Below, piece by piece: positions 3,024 to 63,600 of a stretch of 64,000 bases of DNA. The position numbers and the translations under genes were made by a program. This DNA comes from Sipunculus nudus (Eukaryota; Annelida; Sipuncula; Golfingiida; Sipunculidae): assembly GCA_026874595.1 (NCBI GenBank), contig CM049322.1, positions 58,032,386-58,096,385 of the forward strand, in the 5' to 3' direction. Every line of letters begins with the position of its first letter. Within the stretch, counting starts at the first letter, position 1. Under the pieces are notes generated by a model. The model had not been told where the DNA came from. It did no database searches and worked only from the letters and a program-made list of their open reading frames with translations.

Positions 3024-3302
3024 TACCCCGCCCAATTCTATTGTGCACCCGAGTACAATAGGATCAGTGTCATTCATTAAATGTTCCCTCTAATACGCAC
3101 AAAGCATAATCTCGTAATCTCGTAAAGTCTCGGCTTTCCAAACCACGCCGTTAGCTTCATTCTAACAACATTCACCTGATGATCGGGTCGTATCCCGTGC
3201 AACAGACTGTAGTGAATATACAGTGTTGTTTTTCTTCAGAGTTATACCGCTCTGGCCTAGTCTGAAGGCCATAGAGTACTTTACATCGGACGGTAACGCT
3301 AC
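3024..3302 (+). repeat. 279-bp hairpin-rich element, copy 1
   Basis: This aligns without gaps to 33668-33946, with about 21 mismatches counted by eye. It contains a chain of short inverted repeats: AACAAC/GTTGTT enclosing CGGG/CCCG and ACTGTA/TACAGT, then CAGAG/CTCTG, then GGCC/GGCC. A CTGATGA box follows the first strand of the outer stem, and GCAAC follows the CGGG stem (GAAAC in the other copy). No open reading frame spans it. The right side runs into TA-rich sequence. It is a non-coding mobile-element end or a structured repeat; the family is unknown. Confidence 0.75.
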
Positions 3303-5448: not shown

Positions 5449-6175
5449 ATGGGAACTGTGACAATTCTATTCCTGACAGCAATAGCCCTATCTACTTGTT
5501 GTAAGTATATTTCATATATTTTCATGATGAAATGATACTTTTTCATAACATTTGCTCAGTGTTGCATCAAACGCAGACATTTTTAATACCTATACTACAG
5601 CGGGAGAGTTACTCAATCATACAACACTGGGAACTCCATGAAAAATGACTATTTAATGTATGAACATGATTTTTTTTTCAAACTAACACACACATATATA
5701 TATTTACATAAAATATGTATTGGATTATATTATGTGTGAATATCCCATACATGTTTCAGGCGCTGGTGTTCACGGGCGCTTCACTCATCGCTACCCTTAT
5801 GGTCGATTTGCACCCAGGCCTTCTTGCTACATGTTCGTCACTTCTACTTATTCATGGCTGGAGGCAAAGAATAACTGCAACAAACATGGCGGGAACCTGG
5901 TCAGCATCGAAACAAAGGGCGAGAACGACCACCTGATCAGAATCATTCAGCGGCTTGACAAGCTAGATTTTTGGACAGGAGGGAACGACATATCTTCTGA
6001 GGGGGTGTGGCAATGGGTGGCTAATCACAGCAAGTTATCGTTCACAGACTGGTACCCGGGTAATCCGAGCAATAGTGGTTCTAATGAACATTGTCTGGAA
6101 ATGATGAAAAGCTTTAAGTGGAACGACATGCCTTGTGGGTCCAAACGAGGTTCAATTTGTGAAAAGGCGTGTTGA
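5449..6175 (+). CDS. Secreted C-type lectin domain protein, gene 1 (two exons)
   Basis: The coding join is 5449-5500 and 5760-6175, giving 155 residues. Exon 1 encodes M-G-T-V plus a hydrophobic stretch (residues 5-16), a signal peptide. It ends in phase 1 at a consensus donor, GTAAGT, and exon 2 follows TGTTTCAG. Exon 2 carries one complete C-type lectin domain (about residues 39-152). Visible are SCYMF, the WLEA/NNC helix, GG-LVSIE, WTGG, GVWQW, a DW-PG turn, WND at 138-140 and cysteines 57/151 and 129/143 in the canonical pairing positions. C40 and the C-terminal C155 may form a further pair (inference). The Ca2+/sugar tripeptide reads N-P-S where EPN or QPD is usual, so ligand preference is uncertain. 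N106-H-S is a possible glycosylation sequon. Such short secreted lectins usually bind microbial glycans or act in biomineral or mucus matrices. It is paralogous to the gene at 39140. Confidence 0.93.
5501..5759 (+). other. Intron 1 of lectin gene 1
   Basis: A 259-base phase-1 GT-AG intron with donor GTAAGTAT and acceptor TTTCAG. It separates the signal-peptide exon from the lectin exon. Lectin gene 2 has an intron at exactly the same place, 385 bases long. An in-frame ATG inside this intron (5720) allows a read-through frame, but the spliced model gives a signal peptide and matches the paralogue. Confidence 0.88.
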
Positions 6176-6680
6176 ATGAAAAAGAGGAGCCATCAGAATG
6201 GCACCCATGGGGAAAAAAATCCGCATCACCTAATCTGGGTGAGACATTATAATACATTCATTGTATACCATACATATTTCTCCTCGTTACTCAAAAAGTG
6301 TTTTTTCCCCAGAGCATCCTATCCCTTATATGAAAATGATACGTTGCTTAAGCCAATCTGCTTGTGATAGTTTTTGAATTAGATCCTTTCTCTTTTTGCG
6401 ATATCTGATTATTAACATGGATTGACTTAACTTATTGTATAAGAAAAATATCATCAACCTGTTTTTACTGGAAATCGAATAATGCTCAAATATTGTTAAC
6501 ATTTTCTCAACATACACAAATATATGCATTAGATATATATGTGAGAAAATGAGACCGAAACAACATTCTACATCTTCGTGATTAACACAAGGTTCACACT
6601 GATAGTTGCAATATTCAAGGTGTTATAAGAATCAATTCTCCGATTAGTTGTTATTGTTATTTCTGTCACAAATATTAAAT
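6176..6680 (+). repeat. 3' UTR and flank duplicated with lectin gene 2
   Basis: Similarity to 39984-40475 continues past the stop: TGAATGAAAA, CATCAGAATGGCA, TTGTATACCAT, AGCCAATCTG, TGAGAAAATGAGACC and ATATTCAAGGTG are all shared in order. This shows that the lectin pair arose by copying genomic DNA with introns and flank, not by retroposition. No canonical AATAAA was found; ATTAAA at 6674-6679 is a possible poly(A) signal. Confidence 0.75.
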
Positions 6681-7175: not shown

Positions 7176-7695
7176 TTATAAATGTATTTTCAGCCTAGAT
7201 AAAAATTTTATAATATTATTTGGTGGTAGTTAGGGTTTTGGCTCAGTGTTATGACTCAAATCACAGAGCAGTTCATTAAAATACTCAATTTATGAAGTAG
7301 AAAGTAATAAACTACTATTGATAACTTCATAGTTTAATTGGTAGGGTCTTTTGAATAAAAAAAATTATATAAAAAAAAGGAAAAATTAGTTAAAAAAATT
7401 GTAAAATATATAGATAAAATGAGACATGTTACAGCTCCATAGGGGTTAGTGGGATCCGCCAGTGTAGGTAACATTCTAAGCCTTGCCCTCGGGGCCTGTG
7501 TCAAAGTGTGGCAAATAAATTAAACTGTAATTTTGGATTTTTTTGGTCAGTTTAAAGATGTGGGGTAACAATATCACTGGATTCACCCAAATAACCAATA
7601 CCATAATTTATCATAGACACAGCAAAGGGGCTATATTGTTAACATTGACTGACTGGAACTGGCCAAAACTTCGCAAGAAAGGGTGACTCAAATGT

Positions 7696-7913
7696 CATAT
7701 ATCTGATAGTACATTTATTATCCCGCCTTATGCACTTAGCAGCTAATATTGGCTCTACATGATATGGATCTGTTTAAAAAATTATGATAAACTCTAATAT
7801 TTCATTATCTGATGGTACATTTATGACCCGCCTTATGCACTTAGGAGCTAATATTGGCTCTATATGATGTGTATCTGTAAAAAAAAAATCATGATAATAT
7901 ATAATATTTCATT
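7696..7913 (+). repeat. Two-copy tandem repeat, period 106 bp
   Basis: The units 7696-7801 and 7802-7913 share TATCTGATnGTACATTTAT, CCGCCTTATGCACTTAG and GCTAATATTGGCTCTA, each followed by an A-rich run and TAATATTTCAT. No coding frame spans it. Confidence 0.85.
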
Positions 7914-18684: not shown

Positions 18685-19492
18685 AGAGAGAGAGATATAT
18701 AGTGTGTGTGTGTTTCATTAGACGTAACACACAGTAATATCGAATAGTGACAAGTGCACGTGAATTGTAAAATATTGTAAAAATTTCATGCTTCGATAAT
18801 GCACATAAATATACGTGTTGCATACAATAACATGTGTAAGATTAGAAACACTTTCTTCTGTATTACTGTAAGGTTGTCACTGACAACTGATACTTGCTAG
18901 GATATTAACATGACTGTCGCCTAGTTGAGGTAGATCGAAAGTTTTCCCCAGTAGTTGTACTAGAAAAAAAAACTGAGCGACTTTGAAATGACCGAAAACA
19001 AGCATTCTAGTTTCATCAACAATAAAAAAACGGTACGGAGTTTTTTTTTGCAGATTGCAGACATTGCTCATACACGCAAAAGCATGACACCACTGTACGA
19101 GAAAAAAAGAGCCCATCAACATAATGACAGTGTGCGTCACTCCCGAAAGCAGTGGCATCAACGATCCAACTAAAACTGGAAATTGACTTGCCGTGATACA
19201 GATATTTGTTTTGATTTATTCCGATGTTACAACTGCATACGCAGAAATTACAACTAATAAAAGAAATAACTAACAAGCAAACCCATGTACCATCTGCGCA
19301 CAGTTGTTTGTAAGGCCTAGCATTGTTGTAGAGCAGATCCCTTCAACTACACAAGCACAGCTGCTCCTTGTTCTTATGTATTGTCATCAAGCTGTTGATT
19401 TCTGGGAAATTAGTACCAACACAAGAAAGGCACTGTTGTTTATTAAATGCCCCTCCATGCAAATAAATTATACTGCACGCCAAACATGGCAT
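18320..19492 (+). repeat. About 1.2-kb duplicated repeat, copy 1
   Basis: Direct-orientation match to 23622-24873. Shared in order are GTGGCT..GGTTCAG, GGAGTCACAATGTCAGC, TTGTTTACTGATTTCAAT, GTCTCTCTTCTGTTTATGTA, an internal TA microsatellite, ACAAGCATnnnAGTTTCATC, GACAGTGnGCGTCACTCCCG, ATTTGTTnTGATTTATTCCG, TAACAAGCAAACCCATG and GGCCTAGCATTGTTGTAGAG. It is non-coding; overlapping frames on both strands are short. The class is unknown, and the copies are old enough to differ by many substitutions and indels. Confidence 0.85.
18632..18713. repeat. (TA)n(GA)n(TG)n microsatellite inside repeat copy 1
   Basis: It sits at the same place as the TA/TG tract 23938-23985 in the second copy, so the microsatellite is part of the ancestral repeat. 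Confidence 0.95.
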
Positions 19493-23621: not shown

Positions 23622-24873
23622 GGCAGTCAAAATGCGTGGCTGACTTAGGTTCAGGGGGGTAGCGACGATTTCATAGGTACACCACGGGTACAAGGGTTGT
23701 TTTAATCATAGCTTTGGCCTTCCTGAAGAAAAGCTATCCCCGGTGACCTAGCGAGGAGTCACAATGTCAGCTTTGTTTACTGATTTCAATTTACTCATTC
23801 GATTTTTCAAGGCTTCAGGGGTAACTGGAAATTTAATTTTTAAATTTAAAAATATAATTGATTGGAAAGTTGCCGTTGATGTCTCTCTTCTGTTTATGTA
23901 CATTGACTCTCTTAAACAAGCACCCGGAGAATTTAGAAATATATATATATATATATGTTTATATATATGTGTGTATGTTTTTGTGTGTTGTTAGACGTAA
24001 CAAACAATAATTTCGAACAGTAACTAGTGCACGTGAATTGTAAATAATTGTAAAAATATTCATACTCGGGTTTCGGCCTCGGCAAATCCTTTTCCTCGAT
24101 GTGATGTGTAGGGACCTACATTACACAGTCATTCTTCGATTATGCACATAAATATAAGTGACTCATAAAAAAAAGCATGTATGCAATGAGAAACAGTTTG
24201 AATCTTCTGGATTTCTGTAAAGTTGTTATTGACAACTAATACCTGCCACGATATTCAATGCGTGTCCCCTTGTTGGGGTAGATTGATAGTTTGTCCCCTG
24301 TAGTTTCACCAGAAAAATATGAGCGACTTTAGATTGACCCAAAACAAGCATGTAAGTTTCATCAACAATTTAAAAACGCTACGAGGTAATTTTCAGCAGT
24401 TCTTGTTCTATCCTTCCGAAAAAATTCATCTGGTTTCATTTGAAATGTTGGAGACACAGCTCATACACGCAAAGCATGAGCCAATCTTTATAATGACAGT
24501 GAGCGTCACTCCCGAAAGGTGTGTCAACCACAATCCAACTAAAACTAAAACTTGACTTGCCCGGATACATACACATGTTCTGATTTATTCCGATATAGCA
24601 CCTAAATTAGCAAAATGTATTGCTGGAGGTTAACAACAAATAAAAGAAACAACTAACAAGCAAACCCATGCACCATCTGCGCACAATTGTTTCGGAAGGC
24701 CTAGCATTGTTGTAGAGCAGATATCCTCACCTACACGAACACAGATGCTCCTTGCTCATATTTATTGTCAAAAAGCTGTTATTTTTTGGTAATTAGCCTC
24801 CACGCAGGAAAATCAATGTTATTCATTCAATGCACCTCAATGCAAATACATTATACTGCACACCGAGTATGGT
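23622..24873 (+). repeat. About 1.2-kb duplicated repeat, copy 2
   Basis: Direct partner of 18320-19492. This copy has about 70 extra bases near 24065-24135 (CTCGGGTTTCGG ... TACACAGTCATTC) that are absent from copy 1. It includes the internal TA/TG tract 23938-23985. Confidence 0.85.
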
Positions 24874-25065
24874 ATCTGCCCACACTGCCCATTGAATGAA
24901 TTACTCTGGCACCAGTATGTATGGTTCAGTTGTACTTGCCAGGGTTCATACAGCTTAGTATGGGGCTTCCCTATACAGTTATTTTGGTTTGAGCGGGTCT
25001 ATTCAGCATGTGGATCCCTTGCCAAGTCATCTGCATCACTTTTATTGGTCCTGTAAGGAGCTATT

Positions 25066-26506: not shown

Positions 26507-26845
26507 TTACAATACACTTTTAAATCTAGGTATAGAGCGAGCCGCCCCATCTGTTTTCTTTATTCTGATTGAAAGGGTGTCGGCTGTATAATTACCGGAC
26601 CACTTATTGGCAGAATAATCACATTTTCTGTCAACAGCGATAGCCACACCCCCTCCATCTTCTTTCACTCTATCTAAGCGAATCAGGTCATAGCGGCTTA
26701 GCGTGAAAGGTTTACCTGGCGTCAGTTTAGTTTCAGATATAGAACAAATGTATGTATTATTTTTTTCTTGATGATTTAATAATTCAAGTTTATACGTGTT
26801 TAAGTCGTTGGTGTTTACATGGGCAATATTAATACTGTTGAACAT
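26507..26845 (-). pseudogene. Non-LTR retrotransposon endonuclease-domain fragment
   Basis: A minus-strand frame of 112 codons resembles the N-terminal half of the APE-type endonuclease of LINE ORF2 proteins. It begins INIAHVNTNDLNTYKLEL, has the ISETKL motif (catalytic Glu) and continues with the RYDLIRLDR and GGGVAIAVD segments typical of the fold. In-frame stops occur just upstream of the first Met. Downstream the frame ends at a homopolymer after only the first part of the domain, with no reverse transcriptase nearby, so this is a dead fragment. CR1/Jockey-like clades share this arrangement; I cannot assign it more precisely. Confidence 0.85.
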
Positions 26846-28194
26846 AGTTTAAGCTTACTAACAATGTCAGAGTTGGTGACTCCAGGGAAACTCTATATAT
26901 TACCATATACTTACGTTTTGTTGTGGGGTGGATGTGGCCGCTTGCCAGTGACATCAATGAAAGCACGGCTACATCTTGGCGGTTTTTGCTATGAGGACTG
27001 CTTAAAACATGATTCAATTTCAGAGTAAGGCTGAATCAGGTTCCATTTTGCGTATTTTACGTTTCAACCCAGTTCGTGATGAGCTGATCAGTAAAATTAC
27101 TTCCTTACGCACTACTGGGGTACTTAAAATAGGACTACTACTACGGATTATGCCGTAACAGTAGCAGGTGTTTAATTGGTACACTTATATACTACATTTA
27201 GTAACATTTTCACATAATACATTTACCCTTTGTTATCTTAGAATGACAATCCACCGGAAGGCAGCTGATGTTGACCAATTTACATTACTGGCCCTATGAT
27301 CTGTCCACAATCTCCGCTAATCTCCTCAAGAGTTCAAACTATTTTGTCAATCAGCAGATGTTTATAAAACAAAAAAAAATATATATCATTTCTTAAATAG
27401 CATAGAAACAATGCAGTAGTTAACCTTGTACATGGATATTTAGGTTCACATTGTCTTATGTAATCCGGAATTTTTTAATGTGTGCAACAAGACATATAGT
27501 ACATGAATAGTGTGTGGTTTAGTGATACTTTTTAGTCAAAGGGTACAATGTGGCTCACGATTCTAGAACACGTTTAAATTTGGCCATAAACCAAACTTGT
27601 GTAATATGTTATGGTTCTGTCTCGGTAAAATTAATAACTTTCCTGACGATCAAAAATTGTTGGTGATTTGAATCGTGGAGCCATAACACAACAATTCGGT
27701 TTATTATATATTAGATATTAAATTGCTTACCTTTCTTTTACTAAGGTATAAAGATATATTAAACCTATCATTAAGCCTCTGAAAATACTTAAATACAGAA
27801 GCCAAAATTTCAAAAGTCTCTTGGGTCATTTGCTAAAGTATTGGTTGGTGCGACACTACTGTTGTAGAATGCATATAAGCGTATTGTTCATTCAGCTGGA
27901 AATAGTGAAGACATGTTTGAAAAACCGTTAAATTACGGTAATTGCGTTATAGAGATTCGATATATCATCACATCCCCTATGGATAAATACATTCTGTCTT
28001 CTATACTAAGTATCCTTAGCAGCTTCTCTAAGTGTTTTAAAGGTGTTAATAAACTAAAATACAGGTTCCAGTATTCTAGTTACAGAGAGGTTTATTTTAT
28101 TTTTGAAACGGAAGGTCAATGGGATAAGACTCATGATAAAACCCGTTTTTAAAGTATATTTATATAACTATGAATATGTGTGTGTGTGTGTGTA
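26846..28194. other. AT-rich stretch with no recognised gene
   Basis: Sequence just upstream of the LINE fragment on the minus strand (26846-27020) may be more of the same element but is too decayed to read. Nothing else was seen. Confidence 0.45.
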
Positions 28195-32935: not shown

Positions 32936-33253
32936 TTTATCTTAGAGTGTAGCTGACACCTAAACTTACCAAAACAGGAAAGGGAAGTTTTTTACCCGAC
33001 CAATCTTACTTTCTGAGTCAATTGGTACTGATTAAATTTTAAAAAATTTCCTTCCACGTGAAAGGAAAGTTATCGTGATATGTCGCCTGGCAAATAAAAC
33101 TAAATAGGTAAAAAAGTCCAATGAGCCAAAGAAGATAAATACGGGAGGTAAATGTATTGGGGGTTAGGAGGGTCATTGTGTCAGAATAACACAGTGAAAG
33201 TTGCAAGCGCTGACGTAAACGGATGTATATCTGGTTAGTAACACACGACACCT

Positions 33254-33455
33254 TAAAAAAATAATCGGGTATCTTTTTTGCGGTCTCCTAAGTGGTTTGA
33301 TTTGGCTGAATGCCACCTGTGGCCTATGGCTGTAAATCTTCGAGGAAGCAACATGACAAGTTCGTTTCAGCTGAACTGCTGAGAGGCTGTTATTTATAAA
33401 AGATACACTGACATTTCGATGTTTCCCCCTGTCACAATGTAGATTGTGCACACGA
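33254..33455. repeat. Dispersed repeat fragment, partner of 29618-29830
   Basis: Same landmarks as listed for 29618-29830. It lies about 320 bp after the other shared fragment, versus about 1080 bp in the first pair, which suggests one larger decayed repeat with indels. Confidence 0.5.
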
Positions 33456-33589
33456 ATAGTATGTCTCCGTGATGATTAAGGAGTCAGATTTTAATGTGGC
33501 AATAACAAGGGAGACCTGGGTTACTTAAAACAAATTGGACTGGAGAGTTTAAGATTGATTGATTGAAAGCATTGATTACTCATGGCGCA

Positions 33590-33590
33590 A

Positions 33591-33663
<73 letters not shown>

Positions 33664-33670
33664 TATATAC
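33590..33670. repeat. (TA)n microsatellite directly abutting the hairpin-rich element
   Basis: About 80 bases of TA ending exactly where the 279-bp element copy 2 begins. Confidence 0.95.
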
Positions 33671-33946
33671 CCCGCCCAATCCAATTGTGCCCCCGAGGAC
33701 AATAGGATCAGTGTCAGCCATTAAATGTTCCCCCCAATACGCACAAAGCATAATCTCATAATCTCGTAAAGTCTCGGCTTTTCAAACGACGCCGTTAGCT
33801 TCATTCTAACAACATTCACCTGATGATCGGGTCGCAACCCGTGAAACAGACTGTAGTGAATTTACAGTGTTGTTTTTCTCCAGAGTTATACCGCTCTGGC
33901 CTAGTCCGTAGGCCATAGAGCACTTTACATCGGAGGGTAACACTAC
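33668..33946 (+). repeat. 279-bp hairpin-rich element, copy 2
   Basis: Gap-free partner of 3024-3302. Predicted pairings are AACAAC / GTTGTT as the closing stem, CTGATGA at 33820-33826, CGGGT (33828-33832) / ACCCG (33837-33841), GAAAC at 33843-33847, ACTGTA / TACAGT, then CCAGAG / CTCTGG, then GGCCTA / TAGGCC. The CTGATGA-stem-GAAAC order is that of a hammerhead ribozyme core, but a U-U mismatch at the base of the second stem and spacer bases before CTGATGA make catalysis doubtful. TA microsatellites flank it on both sides. Non-coding. Confidence 0.75.
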
Positions 33947-33952
33947 GTTCCA

Positions 33953-34013
33953 TATAAATAAATAAATAAATATATATATATATATATATACATACATATA
34001 TATATATATATAA
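33953..34013. repeat. TAAA/(TA)n microsatellite on the right flank of element copy 2
   Basis: AAATAAATAAATA followed by TA repeats with CATACATA interruptions. Confidence 0.95.
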
Positions 34014-36737
34014 ACACAAACAAATAACTATATGGATCTGTATTTTTATAGGTATTAAAGAACGTACCATACAATTAACATGAAGTCTAAATATGGAAGA
34101 TGGAACCGGGAGGGGGCGTATGGTCAATTCAGATATAGGAGAATGTTTTGTGAAGAACTGTTAGACTGTTAGAATATGAAACTTGTCATGCATGGACAAT
34201 TCAAAAAGACGCATGGAAACTTTGCCCCAGAATAATCTTTTTGCCTCCGACACGATCGCATGCGTGCGTCCCCTTTCTTTGTGTGTTTGTGTGTTTTTTG
34301 TATGTGCGTGTCTTTTTCAAACATAGGTGAAGCTATCACAAACGGAATATCATGCGTTTTCCAGTGCATTTATGAAATGGGACTAAAAAATAATTGACTA
34401 GATTTTGGTTTCAATCCAGCATCTTTTCCGGATTCTGTTACGTCATCATTGACTATTCACAAATGTAAGGTTACTTATGCAAGAAAGAACCTGAGAATAT
34501 GGACCAAAAAGTGAATGAATGTAGAAAAGGACAGTCCCATGCGCCTTGTATGGTGTATGGAGTGATAAGAAACTAGAGGTCGTGATGTCCAGTGCGTTTG
34601 CATAACGTGTTCGAAAGGTGTGCTCTAAGTTCAAAGGTGAGTAGATGCACACACCGGTTAGGTAGCATCCAACAATGGGCCCCCATGTCGCGTAGACATC
34701 TATCCATTGGAATGCACTTTCTAGTTTTTCATGAGTACTCTCCCTGTTGACATTCGCCTGGACTTGGCCACACAGAAGTAACGCAATTATTCGAAAAAAA
34801 ATCCTGTTGTTTAGGATTCGGTATTATAAAGTGACTTGAGTTTGGAGTATGAACGCTTAAGGTGAGAAGAGTGAATGCGTAACAATAATGCTACCGCATT
34901 ATATATATATATATATATATCTATTTATATATATATATATATACTATTTAGATTAACAACATGACGAAAAGGATTTCATCATCATATTGTCTGAAATCGA
35001 CAATTACCTTTTGTAGCCAGTTGATAGGACCTGATTGAGGTCTGCTCCGTGGGTTGGCAGGTTTATGTTAATGTAGTGATAGTTTTTCATTGCCCCACGT
35101 CACCTTAGGATACTCGGCCGTTTTTAATTGACTTTCATCCGGCCTTCAATGTTCACTCATACAAATATCTATAAAAACCCCCGCGCTTACTATGGGAAAC
35201 TTTGTAACCATTTGTTAGAGAGATATCTGATGAATAATTACATATGAATATATGACAAGAAACGAGGATATATTTGTTTTGTAAAGTTGCCTAGACGGCG
35301 TCCGGACCCACAACGTGTAAGAGTTATGAGATAAGTGTGTGAGTGTGTGTGCCTTTTAATTTCGCATATCGGTAACACCATACACGTGTTACCTGTCCTG
35401 AAGTAACTATCACGATTGCACTAGTATACAGGAGCTTATTGTCCTAAATAAAGAGTCAATAACTGCAAATTAGTTAATTAGGTAATTAGCTAAAATAAAC
35501 CAGTTCCCCTGGCAAACGAGGTAATACAATGTGGGAGTCAGATGCTAGTTTGATATATAATTGTTTAAACAATGGAATTTATACAAGAAACACATAATGT
35601 AATTAAAAAAAGGTGTAGAGAAGTCACACAGAGGAGTTTGTCATTAATACCGTGGAGCCGTGTGAATAATTCTGAGTGAGGTCATTGCCTTTATTTTTAT
35701 TGAGCTCAATTAAAAATTCAGCGATGGCTTTGCCATTATTGAAATGCTCAGGTATCCTTGAAACCTTTTGCTGTTTTTACGTTTTGTTTGTTTTGAAATG
35801 TGGGTGTCTTAGTGGAATAATGAGTTGCATGACATTCGCTCAACAAAGGATCAGTTTTAGAGATATATATTATTTTGAAGAAAAGTTGGATGTTAATCCT
35901 CAACATAATCTTACATGAACGGTTCAATGCGCTGCAAGACATGTTTTGTCGGTTAATTCGATATATATATATCACCCCTATCTCCTAATTTGACTAAGAC
36001 ACAAACCGGACTATAATTCTGGTAGACAACAGCAACACGTTGTTATATTAATAGAGGCCTACTTTAATTTTAGCCGAAAGCTGTACCACATATATCAATC
36101 AACGGACATGATTTCTAAACAATAGTTTTAGTTTGATCATTAAGACAAATGTTCAAAATTGTTTTCCCGTTTGGGCGGCTAATGTGCCTGACGATGGAAG
36201 ATGAATATCAAAGCGATATACTGATGTTTATTATATACATTAAATAAGTGAAAGGAATTCTAGTAAAAGCAACTGTTCTTGGACGTGTTGCTTACATTAG
36301 CAGCGAAATGCTGTTGGAAAATATTTCAATATGAGTGGCTAATTACTGACTGGTCTTAAAATATAGATGAATATTAAAATCAATCTGGAACAGTCAAGAA
36401 AGATTGCTTTCCCTGGCCGTGTTGTTAAAATGAAAAAAAAAAATACCTCGAATAATAAAAACAGTTTAACGGGAATGTTTGCGATGTGTTGATTGAAAAT
36501 ATATTATAAACCGGGGTGGGATTTAATAATTCCTCAAACATATACATACTTGCATATATGGTTCAAGGATTCTTGTGTATAAAATTGCATAATGCATACA
36601 GTGTACATATATACTCCTTTATTTGGTTTGTCTAAAAGCAACATTAAGAACACGAATTTGTTGGGATTAAATTACTTGCCGGTGTAAGCTATGAGCCACA
36701 TATAATTAACAAACAGTTTTACAGATGATGTTTATCG
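34014..36737. other. Stretch with no recognised gene; (TA)n at 34900-34944
   Basis: Apart from an interrupted TA microsatellite (34900-34944) and a short GTGTG run near 35340, nothing supportable was found. Confidence 0.5.
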
Positions 36738-39139: not shown

Positions 39140-39983
39140 ATGGTGACAACGACATTTCTACTGCTGGTGTCAGTTTTGCTCTCATTATGCTGTAAGTATA
39201 AAAACACTCAAATATTTTGATCTAATGTTTTTATCTACATAAGACATATATTAATACAATAGTTGAGTATCAAAATAATAAAGAATCAGTATAGATGAAC
39301 AAAGTTACCTGAGTTTGTTGTTACGCTATTATTATAGCCTTCTTCTTCACAGAATTTTTGGAGAAATAATGTTCAAAATAATGACATTTTGCCTAGGGGA
39401 GCATCCATCATGGTCAGCTAGTTGACCGAGTAATGAAACTTGTGCTTTTGTACATGCCCTTACAAAAAATAATGCAAGCCCTTTATTTCTTAAAAAAAAT
39501 ACTGATCGTTTAACATATACCCACCCATTTCATTTGGAAATTTGATTTTATAATCACTTATGGTTTACATAATTAGCTGCCAGCACATTCACTCATCGTT
39601 ATCTTTATGGGCGACATGTGCCGATGCCATCATGCTACATGTTCGTCACCACTCAACTCACGTGGCTCGAGGCAATGAACAACTGCCGCCAGCACGGAGG
39701 ACACCTTGTCAGCATTGAGAGCAAGGGCGAGAACGACCATCTGGTCAGTATCATCAAGAAACATTACAACATGGATTGTTGGACAGGAGGGAACGAAATA
39801 TCTTCTGGGGGTGTGTGGCAATGGGTGGCTTATCACAGTAAATTATCGTCCACAGACTGGCATCCCGGTGAATCGAATAGTTCAAAGGAAAACTGTATGA
39901 TATTATGGAAACCATTCAGCTGGAAATGGTTCGACGCGCCTTGTGGATGGAAACGAGCTTCCATTTGTGAGAAACCGTGTTGA
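39140..39983 (+). CDS. Secreted C-type lectin domain protein, gene 2 (two exons)
   Basis: The coding join is 39140-39191 and 39577-39983, giving 152 residues. Exon 1 (MVTTTFLLLVSVLLSLC) is a signal peptide and ends in phase 1 at GTAAGT. Exon 2 starts after ATAATTAG; a nearby CAG at 39581-39583 would break the frame. The lectin domain spans about residues 36-149, with SCYMF, WLEA, NNC, GG-LVSIE, KGENDHL, WTGG, GVWQW and the canonical cysteines 54/148 and 124/140. C37 and C152 may form another pair. Compared with gene 1, the Ca2+/sugar tripeptide is E-S-N (proline lost), WND has become WFD (135-137), and there is an extra cysteine at 85 that could be free or form a dimer. Loss of the WND Asn suggests weak or altered Ca2+-dependent sugar binding. 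N118-S-S is a possible glycosylation sequon. The frame is intact and not pseudogene-like. Confidence 0.92.
39192..39576 (+). other. Intron 1 of lectin gene 2
   Basis: A 385-base phase-1 GT-AG intron at the same codon position as in gene 1. The polypyrimidine tract before the acceptor is weak (GGTTTACATAATTAG), but this is the only nearby AG that keeps the frame. Confidence 0.83.
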
Positions 39984-40475
39984 ATGAAAACAATAGTCAT
40001 CAGAATGGCAACCATGTAAGAAATGCCAATTACATAATCTTGGTAAAACAAAACAATGTATGAATTGTATACCATGCAGATGTCTAATCTTTAAAAAAAA
40101 AAGTTGCCTCCATAGTATATGACCCCTTTTTTTAAACAGTTATATTGCTTAAGCCAATCTGTTTGTGCTCGTTTAAAGTGTTGTCCTTTATCTACCTAAT
40201 TTTTTTTTTCTGAGTAACATGAATTAATGAAAACAATCTACCTGAGTTTACTACACACCATTAAGTGATATAGCTGTCGTTTTACAGTCATTTAACTTCT
40301 GTGTACTATACAAACATATGCATTCGACTTAATTATGAGAAAATGAGACCAAATTTGTACTTCCAAAACATTTATGTTTAACACAAGCTTGATAGTCATA
40401 ATATTCAAGGTGAAATAATGATACAACTATTTCACTGATTGGCTGTTATTGTCCTTTCTTTCACAACTATGGTAA
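39984..40475 (+). repeat. 3' flank duplicated with lectin gene 1
   Basis: Counterpart of 6176-6680, with conserved blocks in the same order up to the 'GATTGGCTGTTATTGTC'-type end. Similarity stops shortly before the TA microsatellite at 40503. Confidence 0.75.
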
Positions 40476-43757: not shown

Positions 43758-43925
43758 AACGCGAACCTCATACAACATAATATCCCTACTACATATTTCG
43801 GCTCGGCGACCGTGCATGAACGTCATACGATATGCTACACCCACTACATATGTCGGCATGACGACTTTGTATGAACGTCATACAACATTCTACACCTACT
43901 ACATATGTCGGCACGGCGACTTTGC
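43758..43925 (+). repeat. Tandem repeat, period 55 bp, about three units
   Basis: ACTACATATnTCGGC recurs at 43788, 43843 and 43898, each unit with CGACnnTGnATGAACGTCAT before the next. The last unit ends in GCGACTTTGCAAGCAGCAGG. Confidence 0.88.
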
Positions 43926-44030
43926 AAGCAGCAGGGAGAACTGTTGGGTAGCACTCTGACGTTACTACCGTCACGTCACTGCGCTGGTTCCTATAAAAAG
44001 TGCTCAAATACATAGAGGGGTTTGGAATTT

Positions 44031-56349: not shown

Positions 56350-57440
56350 GTATCCGCCAAAACAAAGATTTGCGGATACTATGTATTTGATCAGGTTCCG
56401 CCGCCGCCGCGTTGGTTTCCGGAGAACTCCTTTCAGATCACTGGACCGATTTTTCCAAAACTTGACCCAATTATCAGGTCACATGTGAACTTGTGCCTAA
56501 CCATTTGGCGTTGAATCTGACTTTACCTCTGTCCAGTGAGTCCAACTGTGAGTCTGTTTTCACACATTTACCCACATATCTTCGGACTCGTTTGAGAAAT
56601 CAGGCTAAAAATTTTCCACAAATGTAGCCCTTGGATAGCTTTATAACATACACCAAAAATGGTGGCGCCACCTGCAACTATTTTTGCACAGCGTCCGTCT
56701 GTTCATCTGCCTTGGGATAAAATCACTCATATCTCTGCAGTGGTTTGATTTACCCCCCTGGAATTTTGCATGTGTATACATGCTGGATAGCTTTCTTTAT
56801 TTTATGACAGGTGGCGCCACCTACATTCACGTTCCGGTTGCAGACATCAAGGCTTATACCTTAGGACTGGTTTTACATATCCTCCTGAAATTTTGCATGT
56901 GTATAGATCTCACATAGCTGTTTATCATTCGCAAAAACTGGTGGCACTACCTGCAACCATTTTTGCACAGCTTCCGTCTGTATGTCTGCCGTGGGATAAA
57001 ATCACTCATATCTCGGCAGTGCTTTGACTTATCTGCCAAAAATGTTGAATGTATATATATCTTGGATAGCTTTCTTGATTTTGTGGCAGGTGGCGCCACT
57101 TATATTTATGTTTACGCTGCAGACATCCACGCTTATATCTCAGGGCTTGTTGTATGTTTCCTCCTGAAATGTTGCGTGTATAGATCTCGCATAGCTCTTT
57201 ATCATACGCAAAACTAGTTGCGCCACCTGCAACCATTTTTGCACAGCGTCCGTCTATTTGTCTGCCGTGGGATAAAATCACTCATCTCGGCAGTGGTTAA
57301 ACTTATCTTAGCGCCACCTACATACACATTTCGGCTGCAGACATCCATGCTAATATGCAACAGACCTCACTCTATTTTCCCTTGCCACTCAATCCATGCT
57401 ACTTTTAACCCGTCCCAATCTGATTTCGGCGGGTACGAGT
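56350..57440 (+). mobile_element. Element with internal alternating tandem array
   Basis: The edges carry a short imperfect inverted repeat (GTATCCGCCAAAA at 56350 versus TTTCGGCGGGTAC near 57424-57436, reverse complement with two mismatches). The core 56661-57370 is an array of alternating monomers. A units start at 56661, 56940 and 57216; B units start at 56810, 57089 and about 57308. Each begins at GGTGGCGCCACC or a variant. It is non-coding; 77-91 codon frames inside are repeat translations. The combination of edge repeats and internal satellite suggests a non-autonomous DNA element, but the class is unproven. Confidence 0.65.
56661..57370 (+). repeat. A-B-A-B-A-B higher-order tandem repeat
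   Basis: A monomers (149 bp) contain CCTGCAACCATTTTTGCACA, GATAAAATCACTCAT and GGATAGCTTTCTT. B monomers (127-130 bp) contain CCGGTTGCAGACATC, CTCCTGAAATnTTGC and TAGATCTCnCATAGCT. A and B share the palindromic start and the GnATGTGTATA region, so they descend from one monomer. The last A unit is shortened by about 58 bases and B3 fades out near 57370. Confidence 0.85.
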
Positions 57441-63254: not shown

Positions 63255-63600
63255 TATTTTGCGTGTGAGGCCAGCTACATTTACTGTTCATGTCTAAGAG
63301 TGAGTGAAGGCAGACAAATACTGAATGAAACCAACCAAATTTTCTTCTTGATATCCAAAAGGGAGTGATGGTAGGCATATTCAGACCGAGTGTAAAGTCC
63401 GTCACATTTGATGTTAATATTTAGCTGCGAGTGAAGGCAGCACATGCTCAGTGAAACCAACCAAATTTCCTCTTGATAAATAATAGGGAGTGATGGGAGG
63501 CATACTCATACCGAGTGTGAAGCCAGCCACATTTGCTGCTTTCCATCTAATAGTAAGTGAAAGTATTCACATATATTGAGTTTAGCCAAACTCATTATAG
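63255..63600 (+). repeat. Tandem repeat, period about 126 bp, nearly three units
   Basis: GAAACCAACCAAATTT recurs at 63327 and 63453, with a decayed third copy (GAGTTTAGCCAAACT) near 63578. Each unit has GAGTGAAGGCAG, GGGAGTGATGGnAGGCATA and a CCGAGTGTnAAGnC block. It overlaps the right inverted arm. Confidence 0.85.

What the first reader, a model, noticed from the sequence alone, without database searches (positions are those of the whole stretch)
33668..33946. A 279-bp non-coding element with a hammerhead-like three-way junction, conserved gap-free in two distant copies
Copies at 3024-3302 and 33668-33946 align with no indels and about 21 mismatches (counted by eye), although they are 30 kb apart in fast-decaying DNA. 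Both keep the pairings AACAAC/GTTGTT, CGGG/CCCG and ACTGTA/TACAGT, plus two further hairpins. One difference changes a U-G pair to C-G in the CCAGAG/CTCTGG stem. CTGATGA and GAAAC (copy 2; GCAAC in copy 1) sit at the junction in the order of a hammerhead core. Hammerhead motifs are known in Penelope-like retroelements, so this may be the end of such an element. The U-U mismatch, extra spacer bases and a competing GTTAG/CTAAC hairpin argue against a canonical ribozyme.
Basis: partly seen in the sequence, partly recalled or inferred. Interest (0 to 1): 0.72.

Follow-up and report, generated by a model that had tools for sequence, protein, structure and literature searches.

The report
Interspersed repeat carrying hammerhead ribozyme
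A roughly 280-letter non-coding mobile-DNA-like repeat, present twice in this stretch of an animal genome, carries a sequence that fits a self-cutting hammerhead RNA (intact in one copy, damaged in the other), most likely a relative of small hammerhead-bearing retroelements already known in animals.

Summary
In detail: 3024-3302 and 33668-33946 align over 279 bp with no gaps and exactly 21 mismatches; their flanks are unrelated. They look like two insertions of one short non-coding repeat. The gap-free identity is not itself evidence of selection.

The hammerhead idea is right, but with other helices at the core. In copy 2, ATTCAC (33814-33819) pairs with GTGAAT (33856-33861) directly around CTGATGA...GAAA. 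Helix II is 5 bp above a U.U mismatch, helix III is ACA/TGT, and the predicted cut is 33855|33856. The only other hit in the window is the sister copy; chance gives about 0.001 such motifs per window. Copy 1 reads GCAA for GAAA and is predicted dead.

Against: no Rfam hammerhead match even at E 10, and the complete RNA is predicted to prefer the competing fold. Activity, copy number and covariation are untested, because the source genome could not be searched.

Best reading: a non-autonomous retrozyme-like or Smalpha-like hammerhead element. It is not filed as a retrozyme, because both copies are single units, not tandem.

The parts
33668..33946 (+). Element, copy 2 (279 bp; alignment runs to 33949)
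   Evidence: 279-bp gap-free match to copy 1, 21 mismatches; lies between (TA)n tracts 33591-33669 and 33952-34033
3024..3302 (+). Element, copy 1 (279 bp; alignment runs to 3305)
33808..33874 (+). Complete hammerhead motif of copy 2, with the distal part of helix I
   Evidence: descriptor scan; energies
33808..33813 (+). Distal helix I, 5' strand AACAAC, pairs with 33869-33874 GTTGTT
   Evidence: sequence; modelled
33814..33819 (+). Core-proximal helix I, 5' strand ATTCAC, pairs with 33856-33861 GTGAAT
33820..33826 (+). Core CTGATGA
33828..33841 (+). Helix II CGGGT/ACCCG with CGCA loop, above the U.U mismatch 33827/33842
33843..33846 (+). Core GAAA (its last A opens helix III)
33846..33854 (+). 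Helix III ACA/TGT round GAC
33855..33856 (+). Predicted cleavage site, after A 33855
   Evidence: position follows from the core; cleavage not tested
33862..33868 (+). Bulge TTACAGT in helix I; its TACAGT (33863-33868) pairs with ACTGTA (33850-33855) in the competing hairpin
3164..3230 (+). Hammerhead motif of copy 1: helices kept (helix II 4 bp), core GCAA at 3199-3202 instead of GAAA

Best explanation
The element is a short (about 280 bp) non-autonomous retroelement of an animal genome whose transcript carries a type I hammerhead ribozyme. Inferred cycle: it is transcribed from outside, since no Pol III promoter was seen. The ribozyme folds as helix I emerges and cuts the RNA at the place equal to 33855|33856, as one molecule or as a dimer through its near-palindromic helix III. 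The processed RNA is ligated or used linear, and is copied into AT-rich DNA by the reverse transcriptase of another element. Once TACAGT has been transcribed, the ACTGTA/TACAGT hairpin replaces helix I and helix III, so that uncut or re-ligated RNA would be held inactive. Shown here: two dispersed copies with the same ends, no ORF, the complete motif in copy 2, a damaged core in copy 1, the (TA)n surroundings of copy 2 and the computed fold switch. Inferred: retro-origin, cleavage, ligation, mobilisation and the helper.
For: Complete core and three helices in copy 2, in hammerhead order. Only the two copies hit in 64 kb, also with one mismatch allowed per core segment. Chance: 26 motifs as good in 3.46 Gb of Markov sequence, 0.001 per window; 118 in 2.4 Gb with long loops allowed, about 0.006 per window. 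Dispersed copies with unrelated flanks. Size 279-282 bp, GC 44% and 47%, no ORF, within the ranges given for metazoan retrozymes (170-400 nt, GC below 50%; PMC7229834). U.U at the base of helix II has an active precedent (HHR_Amex2). Bulged helix I extension as described for newt motifs (PMC6155905, passages). Helix III strand can pair with itself in a dimer: 8 bp round a mismatch, -8.9 kcal/mol. Near-motif transcripts of copy 2 form helix I with pair probabilities 0.53-0.98 when the 3' end is at element position 194-198.
Against: No Rfam family reached its gathering score in the window and no hammerhead family is listed up to E 10. For the 67-nt motif the hammerhead fold is 7.6 (copy 2) and 10.6 kcal/mol (copy 1) less stable than the best fold, tertiary and core contacts not counted. 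From element position 202 on, helix I pair probability is 0.02 or less in copy 2 and 0.05 or less in copy 1; with transcripts started at the element's 5' end it never exceeds 0.37 (copy 2) or 0.05 (copy 1). Copy 1 has a changed core base. Both copies are single units, whereas published retrozymes are tandem. No clear target-site duplication. Only two copies; no transcript or activity data. The chance tests were made after the motif had been noticed.
Confidence: 0.68

Rival explanations
1. The repeat is a fragment (pseudo-LTR or 'tail') of an autonomous Penelope-like element, with the hammerhead where such elements keep it.
For: PLEs carry type I hammerheads near the pLTR-ORF junction and their enzyme prefers AT-rich DNA (PAc, PMC11167929); copy 2 lies in (TA)n. 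The joined ends can form an AC-looped hairpin that recalls PAc's reverse-transcription start, though this is not beyond chance.
Against: No ORF: stops in all six frames of both copies. Both copies share both ends, while truncated PLE copies should differ at the 5' end (inference). A 3-bp helix III is present, unlike most PLE motifs as described in PMC7761336 (passages).
Confidence: 0.15
2. An ordinary repeat (SINE, MITE or other) in which hammerhead-like letters arose by chance.
For: The predicted best folds of both copies do not form the motif; Rfam is silent; copy 1 lacks the intact core.
Against: About 0.001 such motifs expected per window, and the helices are kept in both copies although 4 of the 21 mismatches fall inside the 67-nt stretch. 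No exact Pol III boxes and no evident terminal inverted repeat (ends).
Confidence: 0.12
3. Two paralogous genes for an undescribed structured non-coding RNA.
For: Both copies fold better than most shuffles and keep the named stems.
Against: No Rfam family reaches its gathering score in the window. Insertion of copy 2 inside a microsatellite is more typical of a mobile element (inference). The degree of identity needs no constraint.
Confidence: 0.05

Closest known systems
Metazoan non-LTR retrozymes (coral, mussel, axolotl; PMC7229834, parts 1-4 read)
   Same: Type I hammerhead; unit of 170-400 nt; GC below 50%; no ORF; self-paired RNA; U.U at the base of helix II known in one active family.
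   Different: Both copies here are single units with shared ends, not tandem repeats; here the ribozyme is predicted to be masked by self-pairing, which that paper says is unusual for metazoan circles.
Smalpha of Schistosoma mansoni (non-autonomous retrotransposon with type I hammerhead; PMC6155905, passages)
   Same: Short non-autonomous element with a type I hammerhead. That it is SINE-like is recalled.
   Different: No sequence comparison was possible; no exact Pol III boxes here.
Penelope-like elements (PAc, PMC11167929, passages and main text read)
   Same: Type I hammerhead; AT-rich insertion site (copy 2).
   Different: No reverse transcriptase or endonuclease reading frame; helix III present; both ends shared by the two copies.

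Membership tests
Type I hammerhead ribozyme | Core CUGANGA + GAAA + UH in order, closed by three helices | tested here: met
   Copy 2: helix I 6, II 5 (above U.U), III 3. Copy 1 fails at GCAA
Type I hammerhead ribozyme | Match to an Rfam hammerhead model | tested here: not met
   No hammerhead row, up to E 10 in the last three
Type I hammerhead ribozyme | Covariation in helices | not testable with these tools
   Two copies only; the source genome did not answer (11 calls)
Type I hammerhead ribozyme | Self-cleavage | not testable with these tools
   Needs the bench; energy model favours the competing fold
Metazoan retrozyme | Unit 170-400 nt, GC below 50%, no ORF | tested here: met
   279-282 bp, GC 44% and 47%, stops in all six frames
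Metazoan retrozyme | Tandem (dimer to multimer) arrangement | tested here: not met
   Both copies in the window are single units; other genome copies not seen
Metazoan retrozyme | Expressed as circular RNA | not testable with these tools
   No transcripts at hand; folding as a circle gives no clear support
Penelope-like element | Reverse transcriptase + GIY-YIG reading frame | tested here: not met
   Element has stops in all six frames; the whole window was not scanned for such a gene
Penelope-like element | Insertion in AT-rich DNA | tested here: inconclusive
   Copy 2 in (TA)n; copy 1 AT-rich on the 3' side only
tRNA-type SINE | Internal Pol III A and B boxes | tested here: not met
   No exact box on either strand; one-mismatch matches only (8 A and 1 B in copy 1, 7 A and 1 B in copy 2), none at tRNA-like spacing; ARAGORN finds no tRNA in the window

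The most novel reading that the evidence does not exclude
A single-unit hammerhead retroelement that spreads from an RNA circle copied for one lap by a Penelope-like reverse transcriptase, with entry and exit in one stem-loop (the shared TAC ends), and a built-in hairpin that lets the ribozyme act only while it is being transcribed and then locks it. That would tie retrozymes to PLE machinery, which published work only proposes.
Probability: 0.12. Interest if true: 0.65.

Novelty: new member of a known kind. Interest (0 to 1): 0.42.

Why it matters
Hammerhead-bearing retroelements are thought to spread as ribozyme-made RNA circles, and how animal ones are mobilised is unsettled (PMC7229834 names PLEs as a strong candidate). 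A copy pair with the same ends, one intact and one damaged ribozyme, and a predicted on/off fold gives a compact test object for processing, ligation and insertion. As a finding it is a further case of a known kind.

Tried and rejected

Coding explanation: rejected. Selection inferred from gap-free identity: rejected. Known RNA family: none at gathering score; of the 29 rows at E up to 10, many are microRNA models lying on the (TA)n tract and none is a hammerhead; one search gave 2 rows and one search gave 1, none a hammerhead. tRNA-type SINE and terminal-inverted-repeat element: no support. Target-site duplication: none clear for copy 1 (at the element's edges only TACC is shared); not decidable for copy 2 in (TA)n.

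Relatives elsewhere: no match in phages, plasmids or E. coli genomes. Eight scans of viral contigs: seven empty, one with three contigs whose best match to the element is one 29-nt piece (25 or 26 of 29 identical); these three rows were dropped as chance. Two scans of genome contigs: empty. These collections hold prokaryotes, viruses and plasmids, so absence says little.

Circle test: joining the ends gives a junction hairpin of 5 bp (copy 2) or 4 bp (copy 1), not beyond chance (P 0.06 and 0.23). Circular fold z is -2.31 (copy 2) and -2.86 (copy 1) over 100 shuffles each, against linear -2.97 and -2.69, so no clear gain. The pair-probability read-out at the junction failed for copy 1 (index not found). 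Kept as a weak lead only.

Open reading frame 33176-33475 (-) beside copy 2: no Pfam and no PDB relative.

Paper searches: eight; beyond the papers named here only listings were seen. Read: PMC7229834, parts 1-4 of 6 and one word search; PMC11167929, passages and both parts of the main text; PMC7761336, PMC10886601 and PMC6155905, passages only. Two papers on PLE hammerheads are not held.

Full report
What was checked. The two stretches align over 279 bp without a gap and with exactly 21 mismatches; BLAST carries the alignment three bases further (282 bp, 92.2%). A self-comparison of the window (E <= 1e-8, over 60 bp) shows no third copy. The flanks do not match (19 of 100 bases upstream, 36 of 100 downstream), so these look like two separate insertions of one repeat. 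Copy 2 sits between (TA)-rich tracts, 33591-33669 and 33952-34033.

How much the conservation means. With 21 mismatches placed at random over 279 positions, an identical run of 46 or more occurs in 39% of 20,000 trials. Mismatches show no codon phase (6, 7, 8), and stops interrupt all six frames of both copies. Of the 18 repeat pairs listed for the window this pair is the most alike (92.2%; the other 17 are 69.9-85.7%), which fits a younger repeat and needs no selection. Both copies fold better than most dinucleotide shuffles (copy 2 z -2.97, 1 of 200 as good; copy 1 z -2.69, 3 of 200).

The hammerhead, corrected. A descriptor scan for CUGANGA, GAAA and UH with three helices found in copy 2 ATTCAC-CTGATGA-T-CGGGT-CGCA-ACCCG-T-GAAACAGACTGTA-GTGAAT (33814-33861). 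Helix I is ATTCAC/GTGAAT (6 bp). Helix II is 5 bp above a U.U mismatch. Helix III is ACA/TGT round GAC. The base before the cut is A 33855. In copy 1 the helices are kept (helix II 4 bp), but the core reads GCAA, so it is predicted inactive (the need for that base is recalled). Four of the 21 mismatches fall in this 67-nt stretch (element positions 168, 170, 177, 195): two in or next to loop II, one in the core, one in the bulge.

Chance. In Markov sequence with the window's dinucleotide content, motifs with helix I >= 5, II >= 4, III >= 3 and compact loops numbered 26 in 3.46 Gb, that is 0.001 per 64-kb window on both strands; 13 of the 26 had I >= 6, and 5 had I >= 6 and II >= 5. With long loops allowed there were 118 in 2.4 Gb (about 0.006 per window), and 4469 under very loose limits. 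Allowing one mismatch in each core segment the window holds two hits, the two copies. These tests were made after the motif had been noticed, with a descriptor that also accepts an unpaired first position in helix II.

Against the hammerhead. Rfam gives no match at gathering scores in the window and no hammerhead up to E 10. For the 67-nt motif the hammerhead fold is -11.2 kcal/mol in copy 2 and -10.6 in copy 1, while the best fold is -18.8 and -21.2; for the whole element, forcing the hammerhead costs about 9 kcal/mol in each copy. These numbers leave out core and tertiary contacts. In growing transcripts started near the motif, helix I pairs of copy 2 have probability 0.53-0.98 with the 3' end at element position 194-198, 0.05-0.15 at 200, and 0.02 or less from 202 on, when TACAGT is out. 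Started at the element's 5' end the peak is only 0.37 in copy 2 and 0.05 in copy 1. So a brief co-transcriptional window followed by a lock is possible, not assured. The helix III strand can pair with itself in a second molecule (8 bp round one mismatch, -8.9 kcal/mol for a 24-nt piece), as in the dimer mode described for newt motifs.

What the element is. Size, GC (44% and 47%), lack of ORF and a type I hammerhead agree with metazoan non-LTR retrozymes as described in PMC7229834 (parts 1-4 read), which also reports an active axolotl hammerhead with a U.U mismatch at the base of helix II and about 5000 type I motifs in a mussel. But those elements are tandem repeats and both copies here are single units, so I do not file it as a retrozyme. 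Penelope-like elements also carry hammerheads and cut AT-rich DNA (PMC11167929), yet there is no ORF here and the two copies share both ends. Smalpha of Schistosoma is a further close kind (PMC6155905, passages). I hold a short non-autonomous, retrozyme-like or Smalpha-like hammerhead element most likely (0.68), a PLE fragment less so (0.15), a chance motif in an ordinary repeat 0.12, a structured-RNA gene pair 0.05.

Ends. Both copies begin TACCCC and end CTAC. Joined over the shared TAC the ends can form GGGTA-ACAC-TACCC (copy 2) or GGTA-ACGC-TACC (copy 1), which recalls the AC-rich stem-loop where PAc starts reverse transcription. The hairpin is not beyond chance (P 0.06 and 0.23) and the circle does not fold clearly better than the line, so this is a lead only.

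What could not be done. Copy number, tandem copies, covariation, organism and transcripts are therefore unknown. Two C-type lectin domains (the best solved relatives of one are animal lectins and lectin-like receptors) mark the genome as animal; a mollusc is my guess only.

Noticed in passing
5687-6172 and 39573-39980 (+): Two C-type lectin domain exons (Pfam Lectin_C, E 9.1e-22 and 1.1e-17) in a 74% identical duplicated stretch (5780-6373 / 39588-40174).
   Followed up: partly
56635-57308: Tandem array of 2.4 copies with a period of 279 bp, by coincidence the element's length; the hammerhead descriptor finds nothing in it.
   Followed up: partly
7695-7913, 43763-43926, 63302-63535: Short tandem arrays with periods of 105, 55 and 125 bp.
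   Followed up: no
18786-19492 and 24129-24875: Older dispersed repeat pair, 752 bp at 74% identity with gaps, much more diverged than the element.
   Followed up: no
26507-26848 (-): Open frame that looks to me like part of a LINE endonuclease (recalled impression); Pfam gave no family at E 0.01.
   Followed up: partly
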